Below, piece by piece: positions 55,491-63,529 of a stretch of 64,000 nucleotides of DNA. Where the stretch lies: contig OY282373.1 in the NCBI GenBank assembly GCA_958295805.1, forward strand, positions 95,001 through 159,000, read 5' to 3'. A program made the position numbers and the translations under genes. Under the pieces are notes generated by a model. The model did not search any database. It was not told where the DNA came from and worked only from the letters and a program-made list of their open reading frames with translations. Within the stretch, counting starts at the first letter, position 1, and each line of letters starts with the position of its first letter. The stretch comes from an uncultured Nitrospirales bacterium. Its GTDB lineage: Bacteria > Nitrospirota > Nitrospiria > Nitrospirales > UBA8639.

Positions 55491-55569
55491 TTCAGCATGA
55501 CGGAATGGCTGCATGCGTCAACGTCGTCCGACTCTTGGCGTTTGGTGGGGGCAATGGTATAGTCCCGTC

Positions 55570-56832
55570 ATGGTGCACGTGGACTATCGGACCAAAGCCT
55601 TACTCATCGCCGTCTCGGCGGATCCTTTACCCGTGCAAGCCTGCATCAATCGCCTGGTCCCCGAGTTTCTCTGTTTTGTGGTATCCGAATCGCAGAAAGG
55701 CTCCATCGAATCAGACGTTCAACCGACGATCACCAAAATGCCGCAACGCTGGGATTGGATTCTGACGGATGATTCCGGAAGTTTTACCACCGCGCATCAG
55801 ACCGTCACCCAACGCCTGCACGACACGTTGAAGACCTGGGGCCTGCAACCCGGAGACCTGGTGGTCGATTTCAGCAGCGCCGACCCGGCCATGGCCGCGG
55901 CCATGGCTCTCGCCAGCCGACCATGGACCTCGCAGATCGTTCACGTGACCACCCCGGGCAGCGGGACGTCGAAACGGGATCTGGTTGAGTTCAAAGGACG
56001 GACCTTCGCCTGGGAAGACAGTAATCCTTGGAATGAAGAAGCCGTCTCTGCACGACACGACGCTGCTCTGTTATTTACCCACGGCGCGTTCTCCGCGGCG
56101 GCCAAACGGTTTCGGCGCATTGAATCGTTGATCGGTGGAAGCCAGAAACCCTTGTATCACGCGCTCGCGGATATGGCCGATGGGTACGCCGCATGGGAAG
56201 GCTTCAATTATCGCGGGGCCTGGGACAAACTCAAAACCGCGCTCAAAGCCTTAGAGTTAGCCTCGGTCTGGGGAGGTCCACCCGGGATGGCGTCTTTGCT
56301 CGGCAGCGTCAAACACAACCTGACGTTCCTGGAACGCCTCGTCATGGACCCCAATGACACCAAGCTCTCCGTGGCGCATGATTTACTCGCCCACGCCAAA
56401 CGACGCGGGGAACGCGACCATCACGTTGACCTGGCCCTTCACCTGTTGCTTCGAGCCTTGGAAGCGTATGCCCAGCACCAATTGTGGGATCGTTATGAAA
56501 TCAAAAGCTGGGACGTGCAGGTAGAACAATTACCGCCGGAGTTACAGGAATCCTGTCGTGCGTGCTATACCAACGAGGTGGACGGCAAATTTCACCTGCC
56601 GCTCCATGCCCAATTGCGCACCCTGGCCGGGCTGGGACACCCCATGGGGCAAACCTTTCTGCATGAATGGCCCAAAATGAAAACCCTCTGGGACGCGGCC
56701 AACCACAGCGTCCTGGGTCACGGATTTCAGACCTCGAAAGCCGACCGCTTCGCGCAATTCTATGCCTGGGTTCTCAAACTCACCAACGTCACGGAATCCG
56801 ACGTCCCGACCTTTCCAACGATGACGTTATAG
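55570..56832 (+). CDS. CARF-domain protein, TIGR02710/Cas02710-like
   Basis: 420 residues from ATG 55570. The N-terminal part is Rossmann-like (KALLIAVSADPLPVQACINR, FLCFVVSE). DLVVDFSSADPAMAAAMALA and FAWEDSNPWNEEAVSARHDA match the CARF pattern of TIGR02710 proteins, in which GTKPM and a G-E..NPW segment are usual. The C-terminal helical domain includes LIGGSQKPLYHALADMADGY and HDLLAHAKRRGERDHHVDLA followed by LHLLLRALEAYAQHQLWDRY, as in the 6H-type region of that family. CARF proteins sense cyclic oligoadenylate made by type III Cas10. None is encoded here. Assignment rests on motif resemblance. It lies 0.6 kb upstream of cas9 on the same strand. Confidence 0.72.
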   Translation: MVHVDYRTKALLIAVSADPLPVQACINRLVPEFLCFVVSESQKGSIESDVQPTITKMPQRWDWILTDDSGSFTTAHQTVTQRLHDTLKTWGLQPGDLVVDFSSADPAMAAAMALASRPWTSQIVHVTTPGSGTSKRDLVEFKGRTFAWEDSNPWNEEAVSARHDAALLFTHGAFSAAAKRFRRIESLIGGSQKPLYHALADMADGYAAWEGFNYRGAWDKLKTALKALELASVWGGPPGMASLLGSVKHNLTFLERLVMDPNDTKLSVAHDLLAHAKRRGERDHHVDLALHLLLRALEAYAQHQLWDRYEIKSWDVQVEQLPPELQESCRACYTNEVDGKFHLPLHAQLRTLAGLGHPMGQTFLHEWPKMKTLWDAANHSVLGHGFQTSKADRFAQFYAWVLKLTNVTESDVPTFPTMTL

Positions 56833-57240: not shown

Positions 57241-57272
57241 TAAACACAAAAGGGCGACCCGTAGGTCGCCCT
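57241..57272 (-). terminator. Intrinsic terminator of tracrRNA
   Basis: Minus-strand reading: AGGGCGACC (57272-57264), TACG loop, GGTCGCCCT (57259-57251), then TTTTGTGTTTA. A 9-bp perfect stem closed by C(UACG)G, an extra-stable tetraloop, followed by a U-rich run. Confidence 0.88.
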
Positions 57273-57337
57273 CTGAATGTTGCGAATTCTCGCTTGTTAA
57301 TCCTAGCGAAAACCGCCTATTCCCATATGTTCTAAGG
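57243..57337 (-). ncRNA. tracrRNA of the type II-C locus
   Basis: About 95 nt on the minus strand, divergent from cas9. The 5' part (57337-57296) is the anti-repeat. ATGGGAATAGGCGG pairs with CCGCCTATTCCCAT of the crRNA repeat over 14 bp. After a small internal loop, GCTAGGA pairs with TCCTAGC, and AAC with GTT. Then come a small hairpin GCGA-GAAT-TCGC (57293-57282) and the terminator hairpin. This is the expected tracrRNA plan: anti-repeat, nexus-like hairpin, terminator. The start is inferred from the promoter. Confidence 0.9.
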
Positions 57338-57399: not shown

Positions 57400-60300
57400 A
57401 TGTTTTCTTACAGACTAGGACTAGATGTCGGCACCAACTCCCTTGGATGGAGCGTGTTGGAACTCAAGGAAGCAGGCGAGCCGTTTGCAGTGAGAGATGC
57501 CGGCGTCAGGATTTTCAACGATGGACGCGATGACCAATCCAAAGCCACGTTGAAAGCCGATCGTCGCGCGGCTCGTTCAGCCCGCCGACGCCGCGACCGC
57601 TATAAGCAGCGCAGGGACTTCTTGTTGGATGAACTGACCAAAGCCGGGCTGTTTCCCAAACAAGACGAAGAAGACGAACACGGCGACAACATACGCGACA
57701 AACTGCAAAAACTTGATCCGCTGGAACTGCGTGCCAAGGCGATCACGGAAACATTGAAGCCCTATGAGATTGGCCGGGCTCTGTTTCACCTGAACCAACA
57801 CCGGGGGTTCAAGAGTAATCGAAAGGATGCCGAATCCCGCGATGGTGTCGTCAAAAAATCTGTTAAGAAACTGAAAACCGAACTGACCAAACTGGCCGAA
57901 AGTGATGTGGAAACATTCGGCCAGTTCCTATGGCAACGACGCAAGGTCAACGAACCGACTCGTGCGCGGCGGCATGGCACAACACAACAAGATCTGTACG
58001 AGTTCTATCCCACTCGCGACATGTTGGAGCATGAGTTTACTAAGATTTGGGACGCGCAGGCTGAATGCCATCCCGAATTACTCCCGGAGAAAACCCGCGA
58101 ACGTATCAGGAGCGTGATCTTTACCCAGCGCCTGCTCAAGCCGCAAAAGGTCGGAAAATGCACCTACATGTCTGGCGAGAATCGGGTGTTCAAATCCATG
58201 CCGAGTTTTCAGCGTTATCGGATTTATCAAGAAGTGAATAATCTGGAATGGATGACAAGCCGACAAAGGAATGCACTGATTCAATATCCAGAGGCACGAA
58301 ACAAAATTGTCGACATGCTAGAACGCCCCAAGACCAAGGCTGGTAATGTCACCTTCGGCAAAATGAAGAAGATTATGAGAGAAATGGAACTGGCCGAAGG
58401 TCATTTTCAGTTCAATTTTGAAACACCGAAACGCAAAGGCTTTGACGGCAATCACACATCTAACCTGATGCAGGATGAACGTCGTGTCGGGCCGCAATGG
58501 CACCAGTGGTCTCTGGAAAAACAGGATGAATTTATTAGTATCATTTTGAACGATGAACTGGATGACCATGCAGTCCAAGAACGCTTGATGCAGGACTATG
58601 GCCTTAGCAAGGAGGCGGCAATGGCATGTACTGAGGCACCGCTGACGGAAGGCACGGCGGCTCTGTCAAGGAAGGCAGCGCATTTGCTACTTGCAAAAAT
58701 GAAGGACGACATGCTGAGCCAGACGGACGCCGTACAGGCTGTTGCACAAGAGGAAACAGATTTTGTCAACCCTTTCAAACGCGCCAGTGAGGGCCAATTG
58801 CTGGATCGCTTGCCCTATTACGGCGAAGTATTTCAGGATGGCCGTCATATTATTCTGGGTAGCCGTGAAGAAGACGACGACGGCGATGACCTGAAGTATT
58901 TTGGCGGTGTGACCAACCCCACGGGCCACCGCCAAAATCAAATTCCTAAGATCAGACGAGATGACCTGAAGTATTTTGGCGGTGTGACCAACCCCACGGT
59001 GCATATCGCGTTGAACCAGATTCGTCACGTGGTGAATGAATTGCTCACCCGTTATGGGCATCCGGCTTCCATTGCCATTGAACTGGGGCGTGAGTTGCCC
59101 GCCGGAAAGGAAGGTCGCGCTGAGATCGAGAAGGAGCAGAGAAAAAATCAGGAAAACAACGAGAGGCTGAACAGTATTTTACGCGAACATGGCCAAACAT
59201 GTACCCACGATAATCGCCTGCGTTTGCGACTCTGGGAAGAATTAGACGATGATCCGAATGGTCGCCGATGTCCTTTCTCTGGACAGAAAATAGGCATTGC
59301 CGACCTGTTCAACGGTAACGCCGAGATCGAACACTTGATCCCCTTCAGCATATCGCTGGATGACAGCCCCGCCAACAAAGTGATTTGCACCCGTCAGGCC
59401 AACCGCAATAAAGGACAACGAACACCGTATGAGGCTTTTGGTGATAGTCCTGATGGTTACAATTGGAAAGAAATTTTTGAACGGTGTACAAAGCTGCCAA
59501 AGAACAAACACTGGCGTTTCCAGGAGGATGCATTGGAGATATGGAAACGCGACTACGCTGACTTTACAGCCCGGCATTTGAATGACACACGGTATATCGG
59601 CCGGCTGGCCAAGGACTACCTGGAAAACATTTGTCCGTTCAACAAGATCGACGTGCTGACGGGGCGGCTTACGGCTTTGTTGCGGAGCCACTGGGGATTG
59701 AACAGCGTCCTACACGACCAGAATCAACCGCAAGAAGGAAAAAAGAACCGCAACGACCACCGCCATCATGCGGTGGATGCGATTGTGGTCGGTATGACTT
59801 CGCGCTCCATGCTCCAACGGGTCTCCACCGCCGCCAACCGCGCCGAAGAATTTTACCTAGACCGTTTATTTGAGAGGAGCGTCAACGGTAGAAGCCCCAT
59901 TGATCCATGGCCTAAATTCCGTGATGACGTGAGAGACATAGTGAGGGGTATGATCGTCTCACACAAGCCGAAACGAAAACCGCTCCAGGCGCAGGTGGAT
60001 GCCTGGATGCAGGCCAATAGCATGATCGTCTCACACAAGCCGAAACGAAAACCGCTGGGCACAAATACAACTGACGGTAAACTACACAATGAGACGGCGT
60101 ATGGCATCATTTCAGGACCGAACAAGGGTTATTATAACGTGGTTAACCGTTGGGAGATTAAAAAATTCGAAAAGAGGGAACATGTAGAAAATATCCGTGA
60201 TGAACATTTGCGGGACGAATTTTTGCAGGCTTTTGATGCTGCTGATAAGAACGGTATTGTCCGTCTTGCCAAGGACAAAAAGATAAGACGGTTAAGACGA

Positions 60301-60792
60301 ACCGAAAGACTGAAAGTCATTCCCATCAAAAACATATCCGGCAAGGAATATAAAGCTTATAAAGGCGACAGCAACTGGGGAATAGAGATTTACGAATATC
60401 CAGACGGCCACACAAAGGCGGGACAATGGGATGGTGAGGTTCTATCGAGATATGAGGCCAACCAAAAAGGGTTTCGACCCGGGCAGACGAAAAAGCCGCA
60501 CCCGGCTGCACGGCTGGTCATGCGACTGCGAATCAACGATTGTGTTGAAATTACGAAAGATGAGCATAGGCAAATCATGCGGTTACAAAAACTTTCGCAG
60601 AATGGAACTCTAACGTTTGCTCCACATAATGAAGCGAACGTTGATGCGAGAAACCGTGACAAGAATGATTCGTTTAAATATTTCTCCAAAACAGCTAGCA
60701 CACTTAAGGGAAGCAACGCCCGTAAGATGCACATCAGTCCGGCTGGTCGGGTGACTTATGAAAGCCGTCGCAAGCCCCGCCGAAAGCACTGA
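57400..60792 (+). CDS. cas9: Type II-C CRISPR-associated endonuclease Cas9
   Basis: 1130 residues, behind a strong AAGGAGG site. RuvC-I YRLGLDVGTNSLGWSVLE has the catalytic D9. An Arg-rich bridge helix follows (about 52-75, ADRRAARSARRRRDRYKQRR). RuvC-II IAIELGREL has E561. HNH EIEHLIPFS has H645, with the partner N668. RuvC-III HRHHAVDAIVVG has H790 and D793. All nuclease residues are present, so it should cut crRNA-matched DNA. Size and the absence of csn2/cas4 fit type II-C. Odd: residues 496-533 and 851-886 each contain a duplicated 12-13 residue motif (DDLKYFGGVTNPT, MIVSHKPKRKPL) around an unrelated insert, adding 25 and 24 residues in frame. The PAM-interacting C-terminus is basic (SRRKPRRKH). 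cas1 follows six bases later. Confidence 0.97.
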   Translation: MFSYRLGLDVGTNSLGWSVLELKEAGEPFAVRDAGVRIFNDGRDDQSKATLKADRRAARSARRRRDRYKQRRDFLLDELTKAGLFPKQDEEDEHGDNIRDKLQKLDPLELRAKAITETLKPYEIGRALFHLNQHRGFKSNRKDAESRDGVVKKSVKKLKTELTKLAESDVETFGQFLWQRRKVNEPTRARRHGTTQQDLYEFYPTRDMLEHEFTKIWDAQAECHPELLPEKTRERIRSVIFTQRLLKPQKVGKCTYMSGENRVFKSMPSFQRYRIYQEVNNLEWMTSRQRNALIQYPEARNKIVDMLERPKTKAGNVTFGKMKKIMREMELAEGHFQFNFETPKRKGFDGNHTSNLMQDERRVGPQWHQWSLEKQDEFISIILNDELDDHAVQERLMQDYGLSKEAAMACTEAPLTEGTAALSRKAAHLLLAKMKDDMLSQTDAVQAVAQEETDFVNPFKRASEGQLLDRLPYYGEVFQDGRHIILGSREEDDDGDDLKYFGGVTNPTGHRQNQIPKIRRDDLKYFGGVTNPTVHIALNQIRHVVNELLTRYGHPASIAIELGRELPAGKEGRAEIEKEQRKNQENNERLNSILREHGQTCTHDNRLRLRLWEELDDDPNGRRCPFSGQKIGIADLFNGNAEIEHLIPFSISLDDSPANKVICTRQANRNKGQRTPYEAFGDSPDGYNWKEIFERCTKLPKNKHWRFQEDALEIWKRDYADFTARHLNDTRYIGRLAKDYLENICPFNKIDVLTGRLTALLRSHWGLNSVLHDQNQPQEGKKNRNDHRHHAVDAIVVGMTSRSMLQRVSTAANRAEEFYLDRLFERSVNGRSPIDPWPKFRDDVRDIVRGMIVSHKPKRKPLQAQVDAWMQANSMIVSHKPKRKPLGTNTTDGKLHNETAYGIISGPNKGYYNVVNRWEIKKFEKREHVENIRDEHLRDEFLQAFDAADKNGIVRLAKDKKIRRLRRTERLKVIPIKNISGKEYKAYKGDSNWGIEIYEYPDGHTKAGQWDGEVLSRYEANQKGFRPGQTKKPHPAARLVMRLRINDCVEITKDEHRQIMRLQKLSQNGTLTFAPHNEANVDARNRDKNDSFKYFSKTASTLKGSNARKMHISPAGRVTYESRRKPRRKH
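58885..58999 (+). repeat. In-frame 40-bp direct repeat inside cas9 (first)
   Basis: A 40-bp unit starting GATGACCTGAAGTATTTTGG is repeated perfectly at 58885-58924 and 58960-58999 (period 75). The 35-bp insert contains CACCGCCAAAAT (58927-58938), the exact inverse complement of ATTTTGGCGGTG within each copy (58898-58909 and 58973-58984). It sits just before RuvC-II, where family members read a single GG(V/I)xNPTVHIALNQ. Confidence 0.92.
59950..60056 (+). repeat. In-frame 35-bp direct repeat inside cas9 (second)
   Basis: A 35-bp unit starting ATGATCGTCTCACACAAGCC is repeated perfectly at 59950-59984 and 60022-60056 (period 72), separated by 37 bp encoding QAQVDAWMQANS. It lies after RuvC-III, where other Cas9 proteins have one IVSHKPKRK segment before the GxLHxETAYG motif. 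Confidence 0.92.
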
Positions 60793-60798
60793 TGCGTC

Positions 60799-61707
60799 AT
60801 GCCCGATCAGATTGTTGAAATCACCACGCCTGGACTGCATCTCTCCAAGAAGCGCGGATTTTTACAGGTGAGAAACAAGGGCAAACTCGTTGGACAGGTA
60901 TCACTGGACGACATCATCGCCGTGATTGTCGGCGTGCAGGGCTGCTCAATTTCCACCAGACTCATGGATCAACTCAGCCAGCGAAACATTATGCTGGTGG
61001 TGTGCGGACGAAACTTTGTCCCCAGTTCTTTCATCCTGCCTGTTGCCGGTTACGGACGGCAATTCCAGGTGATGCGAGCACAGACGAAAGTGTCTGAACC
61101 GCGCCGCAAACGCGCTTGGCAAAGGATCGTCCGTGCCAAAATTCATAACCAAGCCGAGTTACTCGCTCGCGTGGGGAAAAACAACAACCAGCTTGTCCGG
61201 CTGGCAAACATGGTAAAGTCCGGCGATCCGGAAAATTGCGAGGCGCAGGCCGCACGCATCTATTGGCAACGACTGTTTGGCAACCACTTCCGACGTGACC
61301 CCGAAGCACCGGGGTTGAACGCTGCACTGAATTACAGTTATGCCGTGATACGCGCATGTGTGGCTCGCGGAGTGAGCGCGGCAGGTCTGCATCCTAGTTT
61401 TGGTCTGCATCACAAGAACCCGCAAAACCCGCTGAATCTTGTTGACGATTTGGTAGAACCTTTCCGGCCGATCGCCGACTATGTTGTTTGGCAAGGTAAT
61501 ATCGGTTGCATTCAGGATCTCTCACCAAAAATAAAGGCAAGTCTGTCGACGATTACCACGATGGTCATCCCACTCAAGGAAGAGACCTCTCCTGTGTCAT
61601 TGGCGGCAGTGAAGGTCTGCCGTTCATTCGCCGGTTACTGCCTTAGCGAAACGGATGAGCTTTTGTTGCCCGCCCTACCCACGCCTCCCGACATTTCAGG
61701 CCCATGA
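60799..61707 (+). CDS. cas1: CRISPR-associated endonuclease Cas1
   Basis: 302 residues. The N-terminal beta domain has VEITTPGLHLSKKRGFLQVR. The alpha domain has the metal ligands E148 (NCEAQAARIYW), H205 (GLHHKNPQNPLN) and E220 (DDLVEPFRPIADYVVW), at the positions known for type II Cas1. It integrates spacers with Cas2. The start ATG 60799 is six bases after the cas9 stop. The end overlaps cas2 by four bases (ATGA). Confidence 0.96.
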   Translation: MPDQIVEITTPGLHLSKKRGFLQVRNKGKLVGQVSLDDIIAVIVGVQGCSISTRLMDQLSQRNIMLVVCGRNFVPSSFILPVAGYGRQFQVMRAQTKVSEPRRKRAWQRIVRAKIHNQAELLARVGKNNNQLVRLANMVKSGDPENCEAQAARIYWQRLFGNHFRRDPEAPGLNAALNYSYAVIRACVARGVSAAGLHPSFGLHHKNPQNPLNLVDDLVEPFRPIADYVVWQGNIGCIQDLSPKIKASLSTITTMVIPLKEETSPVSLAAVKVCRSFAGYCLSETDELLLPALPTPPDISGP

Positions 61708-62045
61708 AGCAACGGAAACATCTCAGTCCCTATCGTATCATGTGGCTCTTTGTGATGTTTGACCTGCCCGTTGTGACTAAAAAGGAAAGAAAGCAGGCGA
61801 TGGGTTTTCGCAACAACCTGCTTGACCTCGGTTTTGAAATGTCACAATTTTCGGTGTATGTGAAATATTGCGCCTCTGGCGACAGGGCAGAATTTGTCGG
61901 TGTCCGGATCCAACGCCAGTTACCGCCTGGCGGAAAGGTTGATATTCTGACGATTACCGACAAGCAATTTACGAATATGAAGCGATTTTATGCTACAAGC
62001 CGAATCAAAAATGACGGGAAAGTTGATCAATTGCATTTGTTTTGA
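61704..62045 (+). CDS. cas2: CRISPR-associated endoribonuclease-fold protein Cas2
   Basis: 113 residues of ferredoxin fold: YRIMWLFVMFDLPVVTKKER with the conserved aspartate, SQFSVYVKYCASGDRAEFVG, LPPGGKVDILTITDKQF and a C-terminal KVDQLHLF. It bridges two Cas1 dimers during spacer acquisition. It is the last cas gene and is translationally coupled to cas1. Confidence 0.95.
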   Translation: MKQRKHLSPYRIMWLFVMFDLPVVTKKERKQAMGFRNNLLDLGFEMSQFSVYVKYCASGDRAEFVGVRIQRQLPPGGKVDILTITDKQFTNMKRFYATSRIKNDGKVDQLHLF

Positions 62046-62085
62046 AGGGATTTTTTCAGCATCAGGCAGAGAAAATCCCTTCAAA
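62041..62085. terminator. 14-bp perfect stem-loop at the cas2-array boundary
   Basis: TTTGAAGGGATTTT (62041-62054) and AAAATCCCTTCAAA (62072-62085) with a 17-base loop. It starts inside the last codons of cas2 and ends 22 bases before the first repeat. There is no U-tract after either arm, so intrinsic termination is not certain. It could also stop or process convergent transcripts of cas2 and the array. Confidence 0.6.
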
Positions 62086-62107
62086 CATAAGGCCTTACAG
62101 AGGACCT

Positions 62108-63529
62108 AGCCTAGCACATGGGAATAGGCGGGGCTAGGACAACGATTTGAAGTGCCTATTGAGCATGTGGCCGAGCCTAGCACATGGGAATAGGCGGGGC
62201 TAGGACAACTACTGAAGAACCATATGCTGAATATATTCGAGCCTAGCACATGGGAATAGGCGGGGCTAGGACAACAAGTGACCCGTGTTATTTGGCGCTT
62301 GGATCAGCCTAGCACATGGGAATAGGCGGGGCTAGGACAACAGATTCGAGGTACCTATTGAGCATGTGGCCAGCCTAGCACATGGGAATAGGCGGGGCTA
62401 GGACAACAGCCGTCCGTTTCTCCGTCGGACACTACTGAGCCTAGCACATGGGAATAGGCGGGGCTAGGACAACGATCGTACGGCTCCAAAGCTTATATGT
62501 CAGAGCCTAGCACATGGGAATAGGCGGGGCTAGGACAACCAGGAGGTCTCTACTATTTTGGAAAAGGTCAGCCTAGCACATGGGAATAGGCGGGGCTAGG
62601 ACAACAGAAGCTTTGTGATCCACTACATATTGTGGAGCCTAGCACATGGGAATAGGCGGGGCTAGGACAACTACAGATTAGCAGTGGTTATCGCTGTACG
62701 GAGCCTAGCACATGGGAATAGGCGGGGCTAGGACAACAACCGGTTCCTATAGGTTTCTTCTTCTTTAAGCCTAGCACATGGGAATAGGCGGGGCTAGGAC
62801 AACCGTTGGTCAGTCTCTGACGAACGCGGATTTAGCCTAGCACATGGGAATAGGCGGGGCTAGGACAACAGCATCCTATCTGGTGTTGATGTCATCATAA
62901 GCCTAGCACATGGGAATAGGCGGGGCTAGGACAACCACTCAGTCAGTCAGGCTATCGTCGTTCCGAGCCTAGCACATGGGAATAGGCGGGGCTAGGACAA
63001 CAAGGTTCGAGCCTATAAATCCTAGATGTGTAGCCTAGCACATGGGAATAGGCGGGGCTAGGACAACTCACTTCGCCCTATTGCTAAAGCAATCGGGAGC
63101 CTAGCACATGGGAATAGGCGGGGCTAGGACAACAGAATCAGGAGCCTCACATGAACTGGTTCTAGCCTAGCACATGGGAATAGGCGGGGCTAGGACAACT
63201 ACCGCAATCAAATCGTTGAATAAAAACCAAGCCTAGCACATGGGAATAGGCGGGGCTAGGACAACGGATACCATTGTTGCATGGTCATGCCTTCGAGCCT
63301 AGCACATGGGAATAGGCGGGGCTAGGACAACACAGCTATCCATCGCACGCATCACCCGCACAGCCTAGCACATGGGAATAGGCGGGGCTAGGACAACGCG
63401 TGGGATGTTCTAACGGAGGGTGTAACTAGCCTAGCACATGGGAATAGGCGGGGCTAGGACAACCGGCCGCCGCGGGTCATCCGTTCAGGATGAAGCCTAG
63501 CACATGGGAATAGGCGGGGCTAGGACAAC
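62108..63529 (-). CRISPR. CRISPR array, 22 repeats of 36 bp and 21 spacers of 30 bp
   Basis: Repeats begin every 66 bases from 62108 to 63494. All 22 appear identical and every spacer is exactly 30 nt. In the minus orientation the repeat starts GTTGTCCTAGCCCCGCC and ends ATGTGCTAGGCT, the GTTG start typical of type II-C, and it is complementary to the tracrRNA. So crRNA is expected from the minus strand, with the leader on the high-coordinate side. The repeat's 3' end contains TGCTAGGCT, an extended -10-like element at the place where Neisseria repeats carry TGCTACAAT, so each unit may have its own promoter. Spacers 62144-62173 and 62342-62371 are homologous. Confidence 0.98.

What the first reader, a model, noticed from the sequence alone, without database searches (positions are those of the whole stretch)
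62144..62371. Two spacers hit the same coding target and differ only by three synonymous third-position transitions
Spacer 62144-62173 and spacer 62342-62371 align over 29 bases with a one-base offset and three differences, at aligned positions 5, 8 and 11, each three bases apart and each a transition. In that frame both read FEVPIEHVA, with codons TTT/TTC, GAA/GAG, GTG/GTA. The array sampled two diverged alleles of one conserved protein gene, most simply from related phages or plasmids, three acquisitions apart. The offset also bears on PAM slippage. The conserved nonapeptide gives a handle on the target.
Basis: partly seen in the sequence, partly recalled or inferred. Interest (0 to 1): 0.78.

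Follow-up and report, generated by a model that had tools for sequence, protein, structure and literature searches.

The report
CRISPR spacers against two microvirus alleles
A bacterium's CRISPR memory recorded the same short stretch of one tiny-virus gene twice, from two virus strains that differ only in silent positions, and the gene can be recognised as the external scaffolding protein of phages related to phiX174, which shows repeated contact with that virus group.

Summary
Spacers 1 (62144-62173) and 4 (62342-62371) of a type II-C array match at 26 of 29 bases with a one-base offset. The three differences are transitions three bases apart.

No nucleotide protospacer was found in IMG/VR, phages, plasmids or related genomes. 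The target was identified through protein motifs. RFEVPIEHVA is the conserved motif of the microvirus external scaffolding protein (phiX174 gpD family), for example RFEVPAEFVA and RFEVPAEYTA (1 of 8000 shuffles scores as well). This protein is a hallmark of Suborder I microviruses (Bullavirinae and pequenoviruses).

Independent support comes from a type I-G array in the same genome. Its spacers 5 and 8 overlap with three differences, all silent, and together read DYKEFSGDPRLWQNEPPH, the microvirus major capsid protein.

The best account is ordinary CRISPR adaptation against several related phiX-like phages. The pair's differences fall in the PAM-proximal seed, and the newer spacer probably lies nearer the leader, as expected after escape and re-acquisition. 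That last step is inferred. Similar cases are known in Legionella.

The parts
62144..62173 (-). spacer 1; guide transcribed from the minus strand; the plus strand reads (x)GA TTT GAA GTG CCT ATT GAG CAT GTG GCC G = FEVPIEHVA of a microvirus external scaffolding protein
62342..62371 (-). spacer 4; second allele of the same target, AGA TTC GAG GTA CCT ATT GAG CAT GTG GCC = RFEVPIEHVA
62540..62569 (-). spacer 7; overlaps 19/19 bases at its end, on the opposite strand, with spacer 3 of the genome's type I-G array (shared, still unidentified target)
62108..63529 (.). type II-C CRISPR array: 22 identical 36-nt repeats, 21 spacers of 30 nt
62046..62107 (.). cas2-side flank with a hairpin and CATAAGGCCTTAC motif, conserved in four congeneric arrays; probable acquisition (leader) end
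   Evidence: the opposite flank shows only the next gene's promoter in common
57248..57337 (-). tracrRNA: anti-repeat (57301-57334), conserved tail and terminator hairpin with T run (57248-57271); fixes the crRNA strand as minus
57400..60792 (+). cas9, 1130 aa (TIGR01865, 1.4e-186)
60799..61707 (+). cas1, type II (TIGR03639)
61704..62045 (+). cas2 (TIGR01573)

Best explanation
This is the memory of a type II-C CRISPR-Cas9 system. It acquired the same protospacer twice, one base out of register, from two related phiX174/pequenovirus-like microviruses (ssDNA phages of about 6 kb). The protospacer lies in the external scaffolding protein gene (gpD family), at the motif PRFExPAEYxAA. The two viral alleles encode the same peptide and differ only at third codon positions. 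Shown: the array, the pair, the crRNA strand, the peptide motif, and an independent second allele pair in the type I-G array of the same genome hitting the microvirus major capsid protein. Inferred: that spacer 4 is older, that the three differences (positions 6, 9 and 12 from the PAM side of spacer 4) let the second virus escape the older guide, and that the newer spacer 1 restored immunity. A genome of only 5-6 kb offers few PAM sites, which makes repeated sampling of one site likely.
For: Pair score 20 vs shuffle maximum 9. RFEVPIEHVA lies on the gpD-family motif: RFEVPAEFVA (L107), RFEVPAEYTA (L067), RFAVPAEYVA (L105); the less usual residues also occur there, H in L108 (RCTVPAEHLA) and I in L099 (RFPAPIEFIA). 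Profile score reached by 1/8000 shuffles for spacer 4 and 19/8000 for spacer 1; 19 distinct microvirus peptides score at least 31, against 1 in the reversed set. The best DNA matches of both spacers among 61 microvirus sequences (22/30 and 21/30) fall on this motif in frame. I-G spacers 5 and 8 overlap 18/21 with all three differences in one codon phase and read DYKEFSGDPRLWQNEPPH. The only tblastn hits for that peptide among 50,697 phage records are pequenovirus major capsid proteins, at the homologous place, 0/8000 shuffles. Over both pairs 6 of 17 third positions and 0 of 33 others differ (P = 0.0008). II-C spacer 7 and I-G spacer 3 share 19/19 bases, so both systems sampled one element. 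The external scaffolding protein is a hallmark of Suborder I microviruses (PMC9239249).
Against: No protospacer is known at nucleotide level, so the exact viruses, the flanks and the PAM are unseen. The D assignment rests on a 10-residue motif. Spacer order is inferred from flank conservation; all repeats are identical, so there is no decayed end. The seed clustering is weak: three differences within the first 4 of 10 third positions, P = 0.033. The spacer 7 / I-G spacer 3 target does not match the microvirus families tested (2134/8000 shuffles as good), so other elements or untested genes are sampled too.
Confidence: 0.86

Rival explanations
1. The pair comes from some other phage or plasmid gene that happens to contain FEVPIEHVA; the gpD resemblance is chance.
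For: A 10-residue motif is short. The GTDB scan found EVPIEHVA in 8 genomes, including NFEVPIEHVA in what looks like a threonine synthase.
Against: The 8 GTDB hits fall in unrelated proteins and frames, at about the number I expect by chance from the size of the collection. No phage or plasmid hit was found. Only 1 of 8000 shuffles matches the microvirus profiles as well, and the same genome's I-G array targets the capsid gene of the same virus group.
Confidence: 0.1
2. The target is read in the antisense frame (ATCSIGTSN), or is a non-coding stretch whose differences share a phase by chance.
For: That frame is open and all three differences are silent in it as well.
Against: It scores as chance against the microvirus families (22.8, below the null median of 25), while the sense frame scores 35.0 with the smaller profile and 40.6 with the larger one.
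Confidence: 0.03
3. One spacer is a mutated copy of the other, made by duplication inside the array.
For: Duplicated units do occur in this genome: I-G spacers 13 and 14 are identical.
Against: The one-base shift needs a gain at one end and a loss at the other with both repeats left intact. All 22 repeats are identical, and the three changes are all silent.
Confidence: 0.01

Closest known systems
Legionella pneumophila Toronto-2005 type I-C spacers against LME-1 (PMC5071653)
   Same: Pairs of spacers in one strain target overlapping sites; the newer one matches while the older one has a seed or PAM mismatch. Different CRISPR types in the species target the same element.
   Different: There the element is a 30-kb mobile element with known sequence and PAM, and protection was tested. 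Here the virus is known only by protein motif, and the systems are II-C plus I-G.
Legionella pneumophila Corby spacers matching microvirus capsid genes (PMC9863629, table)
   Same: Several spacers of one strain match microvirus VP1 genes, i.e. recurrent contact with Microviridae.
   Different: Those hits are to gokushovirus and other VP1 records. Here the scaffolding protein points to Suborder I (phiX174/pequenovirus-like) microviruses.
Type II-C CRISPR-Cas arrays in general (PMC8092290, PMC12638026)
   Same: crRNA repeat starts GTTGT, transcription runs toward the acquisition end, and 3'-end acquisition is reported for the subtype.
   Different: None seen in architecture; acquisition was not observed here.

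Membership tests
Type II-C CRISPR-Cas | cas9, cas1 and cas2 without csn2 or cas4, next to an array | tested here: met
   Cas9 1130 aa, Cas1 type II, Cas2, then the array; no further gene between cas2 and the array
Type II-C CRISPR-Cas | tracrRNA with anti-repeat and terminator | tested here: met
   conserved minus-strand tracrRNA upstream of cas9 in five genomes of the genus
Type II-C CRISPR-Cas | PAM 3' of the protospacer | not testable with these tools
   no protospacer with flanks found
Microvirus external scaffolding protein (gpD) as target | spacer peptide fits the conserved motif PRFExPAEYxAA | tested here: met
Microvirus external scaffolding protein (gpD) as target | nucleotide protospacer in a known microvirus genome | tested here: not met
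   best DNA match 22/30; no exact or wobble match in IMG/VR. The claim made is therefore homology of the target gene, not identity of the virus
Type I-G CRISPR-Cas (second array) | Csb1/Cas7, Csb2, Cas3, Cas4-Cas1 fusion | tested here: met

The most novel reading that the evidence does not exclude
Re-acquisition at the identical PAM site was not a coincidence: Cas9 carrying the older, seed-mismatched guide bound the variant virus and steered Cas1-Cas2 to that same site, a guide-directed form of primed adaptation in a type II-C system that lacks Csn2.
Probability: 0.12. Interest if true: 0.75.

Novelty: new member of a known kind. Interest (0 to 1): 0.52.

Why it matters
It ties phiX174/pequenovirus-like microviruses, whose hosts outside enterobacteria and Vibrio are little known, to this bacterial lineage, and it does so by translating overlapping spacers when no nucleotide match exists. 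The paired, silently diverged spacers in two CRISPR types give a small natural record of virus divergence and a testable case of seed escape followed by re-acquisition.

Tried and rejected
Exact and wobble DNA patterns for FEVPIEHVA and EVPIEHVA in IMG/VR and in relatives and the phylum: nothing except the array itself. BLASTN of the whole array against phages and plasmids: only chance hits. GTDB-wide EVPIEHVA scan: 8 hits in unrelated proteins or wrong frames. Rfam for the tracrRNA: nothing relevant; it was found by alignment instead. The repeat in viral contigs: none, so no virus-borne copy was seen. The joint 47-nt target of spacer 7 and I-G spacer 3: no hit by pattern or BLASTN or by microvirus profiles. 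Placing FEVPIEHVA in the capsid protein (FxVPxxHV or PEHG sites) was considered and dropped once the gpD motif scored clearly better. Microvirus prophage in relatives (PF02305): none, but the control rang nowhere, so this is not evidence of absence. The bacterial control set is contaminated (it holds the arrays and the loci chosen for EVPIEHVA), so only its reversed-protein control is used.

Full report
What is there. The window ends in a complete type II-C locus: cas9 (57400-60792), cas1, cas2, and an array of 22 identical 36-nt repeats with 21 spacers of exactly 30 nt (62108-63529). Spacers 1 and 4 align over 29 bases with 26 identities and a one-base offset. The differences are transitions at aligned positions 5, 8 and 11. 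The pair scores 20; over 300 shuffled spacer sets the best pair never exceeded 9.

A correction to the reasoning. Transitions at third positions are almost always silent, and the third positions of the sense frame are also the third positions of one antisense frame. That frame (ATCSIGTSN) is open in both spacers and also synonymous. The sequence alone therefore supported 'coding', but not uniquely FEVPIEHVA.

Orientation. An anti-repeat lies upstream of cas9 (57301-57334). On the minus strand it is followed by a tail and a terminator hairpin with a T run that are conserved in four other species of the genus. The crRNAs are therefore read from the minus strand, and the PAM lies on the low-coordinate side of each listed spacer. 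The flank between cas2 and the array is conserved across the genus, while the far flank is not. Type II-C arrays are reported to acquire at the end toward which they are transcribed (PMC12638026, PMC8092290). Spacer 1 is thus probably newer than spacer 4; this is inferred.

Search for the target. Degenerate patterns for FEVPIEHVA and EVPIEHVA, and a wobble pattern covering both frames, gave no hit in 2.9 million viral contigs. BLASTN of the array against phages and plasmids gave only chance hits. The genome-wide GTDB scan gave 8 scattered chance-like hits. Relatives and the phylum carry only the array itself.

The clue from other arrays. The same genome holds four CRISPR loci. Comparing all 72 spacers showed two more overlapping pairs besides the given one. 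II-C spacer 7 and spacer 3 of the type I-G array share 19/19 bases at their ends on opposite strands. I-G spacers 5 and 8 overlap 18/21 on opposite strands, with all three differences in one codon phase. The second overlap reads DYKEFSGDPRLWQNEPPH. Tblastn of this peptide against all phage records returned only the major capsid protein of Eel River basin pequenoviruses, members of Microviridae. The E-values were weak (5-8), but the hits lie at one homologous site in a conserved stretch (TYKEIAGDPNVIRNEPPQ), and no shuffle of either spacer scores as well against the microvirus profiles (0/8000 each).

The given pair. With microviruses as a lead, RFEVPIEHVA was scored against five protein families built from 61 microvirus sequences. 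It falls on the best conserved motif of the external scaffolding protein, the gpD family of phiX174. Closest are RFEVPAEFVA, RFEVPAEYTA, RFKVPAEYIA, RFELPAEYMA and RFAVPAEYVA, and the unusual residues I and H of the spacer also occur there (RFPAPIEFIA, RCTVPAEHLA). Shuffles reach the score of spacer 4 in 1 of 8000 and of spacer 1 in 19 of 8000 cases. Among the 61 sequences the best DNA match of spacer 1 (22/30, L105:1197) and of spacer 4 (21/30, L067:2371) both lie on this motif in frame. The antisense frame scores at chance level. Reversed proteins give one peptide at score 31 or more, against 19 in the real set. This scaffolding protein is a hallmark of Suborder I microviruses, i.e. Bullavirinae and the pequenoviruses (PMC9239249). 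A congeneric II-C array (G008, spacer 5) reads SCPKAVRYS, close to the microvirus replication protein motif SCPIAVRFS (28/8000, one of 34 spacers tested), which fits recurrent contact across the genus.

How it works. The simplest account is repeated adaptation to a family of related phiX-like phages. In both allele pairs together 6 of 17 third positions and none of 33 other positions differ (P = 0.0008), so the viruses encode the same peptides but are well diverged at silent sites. A genome of 5-6 kb has few PAM sites, so the same site is easily sampled twice. The three differences of the given pair lie at positions 6, 9 and 12 from the PAM side of spacer 4, i.e. in the seed. An older guide 4 would be expected to fail on the second virus, and a new spacer at the same site would restore immunity. 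This matches the Legionella LME-1 case, where newer spacers match and older overlapping ones carry seed or PAM mismatches (PMC5071653). The clustering itself is only suggestive (P = 0.033), and order, escape and immunity are inferred, not shown.

The offset. The one-base shift lies at the PAM end. In 36 of 44 distinct gpD motifs proline (codon CCN) precedes the arginine, so the PAM-side flank is predicted to read NGG for spacer 4 and NNGG for spacer 1. This is a prediction, not a measured PAM. For the I-G pair, spacer 5 supplies the flank of spacer 8: if the crRNA runs with the repeat as listed, the bases 5' of its protospacer read CATTTT, consistent with the TTN PAM reported for type I-G (PMC11640852). 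The reverse flank (of spacer 5, taken from spacer 8) ends TTCA and would need a one-base slip.

What is known and what is new. Paired spacers against variants of one element, several CRISPR types against one element, and CRISPR spacers against microviruses are all known (PMC5071653, PMC9863629, PMC9239249). New here, as far as the searches went, are the link of Suborder I microviruses to this lineage by reading overlapping spacers as protein, and the same silent-divergence pattern in two CRISPR types of one genome. The host could not be named with the tools.

Noticed in passing
window 62540-62569 and G000:C1:271102-271137 (L042): II-C spacer 7 and I-G spacer 3 overlap by 19 identical bases at their ends on opposite strands, giving a joint 47-nt target CAGGAGGTCTCTACTATTTTGGAAAAGGTCATGCTATTGTTTCGGCA that matches no phage found.
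   Followed up: partly
G000:C1:270919-272120: Type I-G locus; spacers 5 and 8 overlap with three silent differences and read DYKEFSGDPRLWQNEPPH of a microvirus major capsid protein; spacers 13 and 14 are identical.
   Followed up: yes
G000:C1:2316249-2317855 and 2850348-2851316: Two further CRISPR arrays (22 spacers beside a Cas4-Cas1 fusion; 13 spacers with a type III-like repeat), so the genome has four CRISPR loci.
   Followed up: partly
window 58885-58999 and 59950-60056: cas9 carries two in-frame direct duplications: 40-bp identical copies 75 bp apart (DDLKYFGGVTNPT twice) and 35-bp identical copies 72 bp apart (MIVSHKPKRKPL twice).
   Followed up: no
window 55513-56832: A CARF-domain CRISPR-associated protein (TIGR02710) lies just upstream of the II-C locus.
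   Followed up: no
L026 1667-1698 and 1916-1947: A congeneric genome (G008) has two tandem copies of the tracrRNA, and its II-C spacer 5 reads SCPKAVRYS, close to a microvirus replication protein motif.
   Followed up: partly
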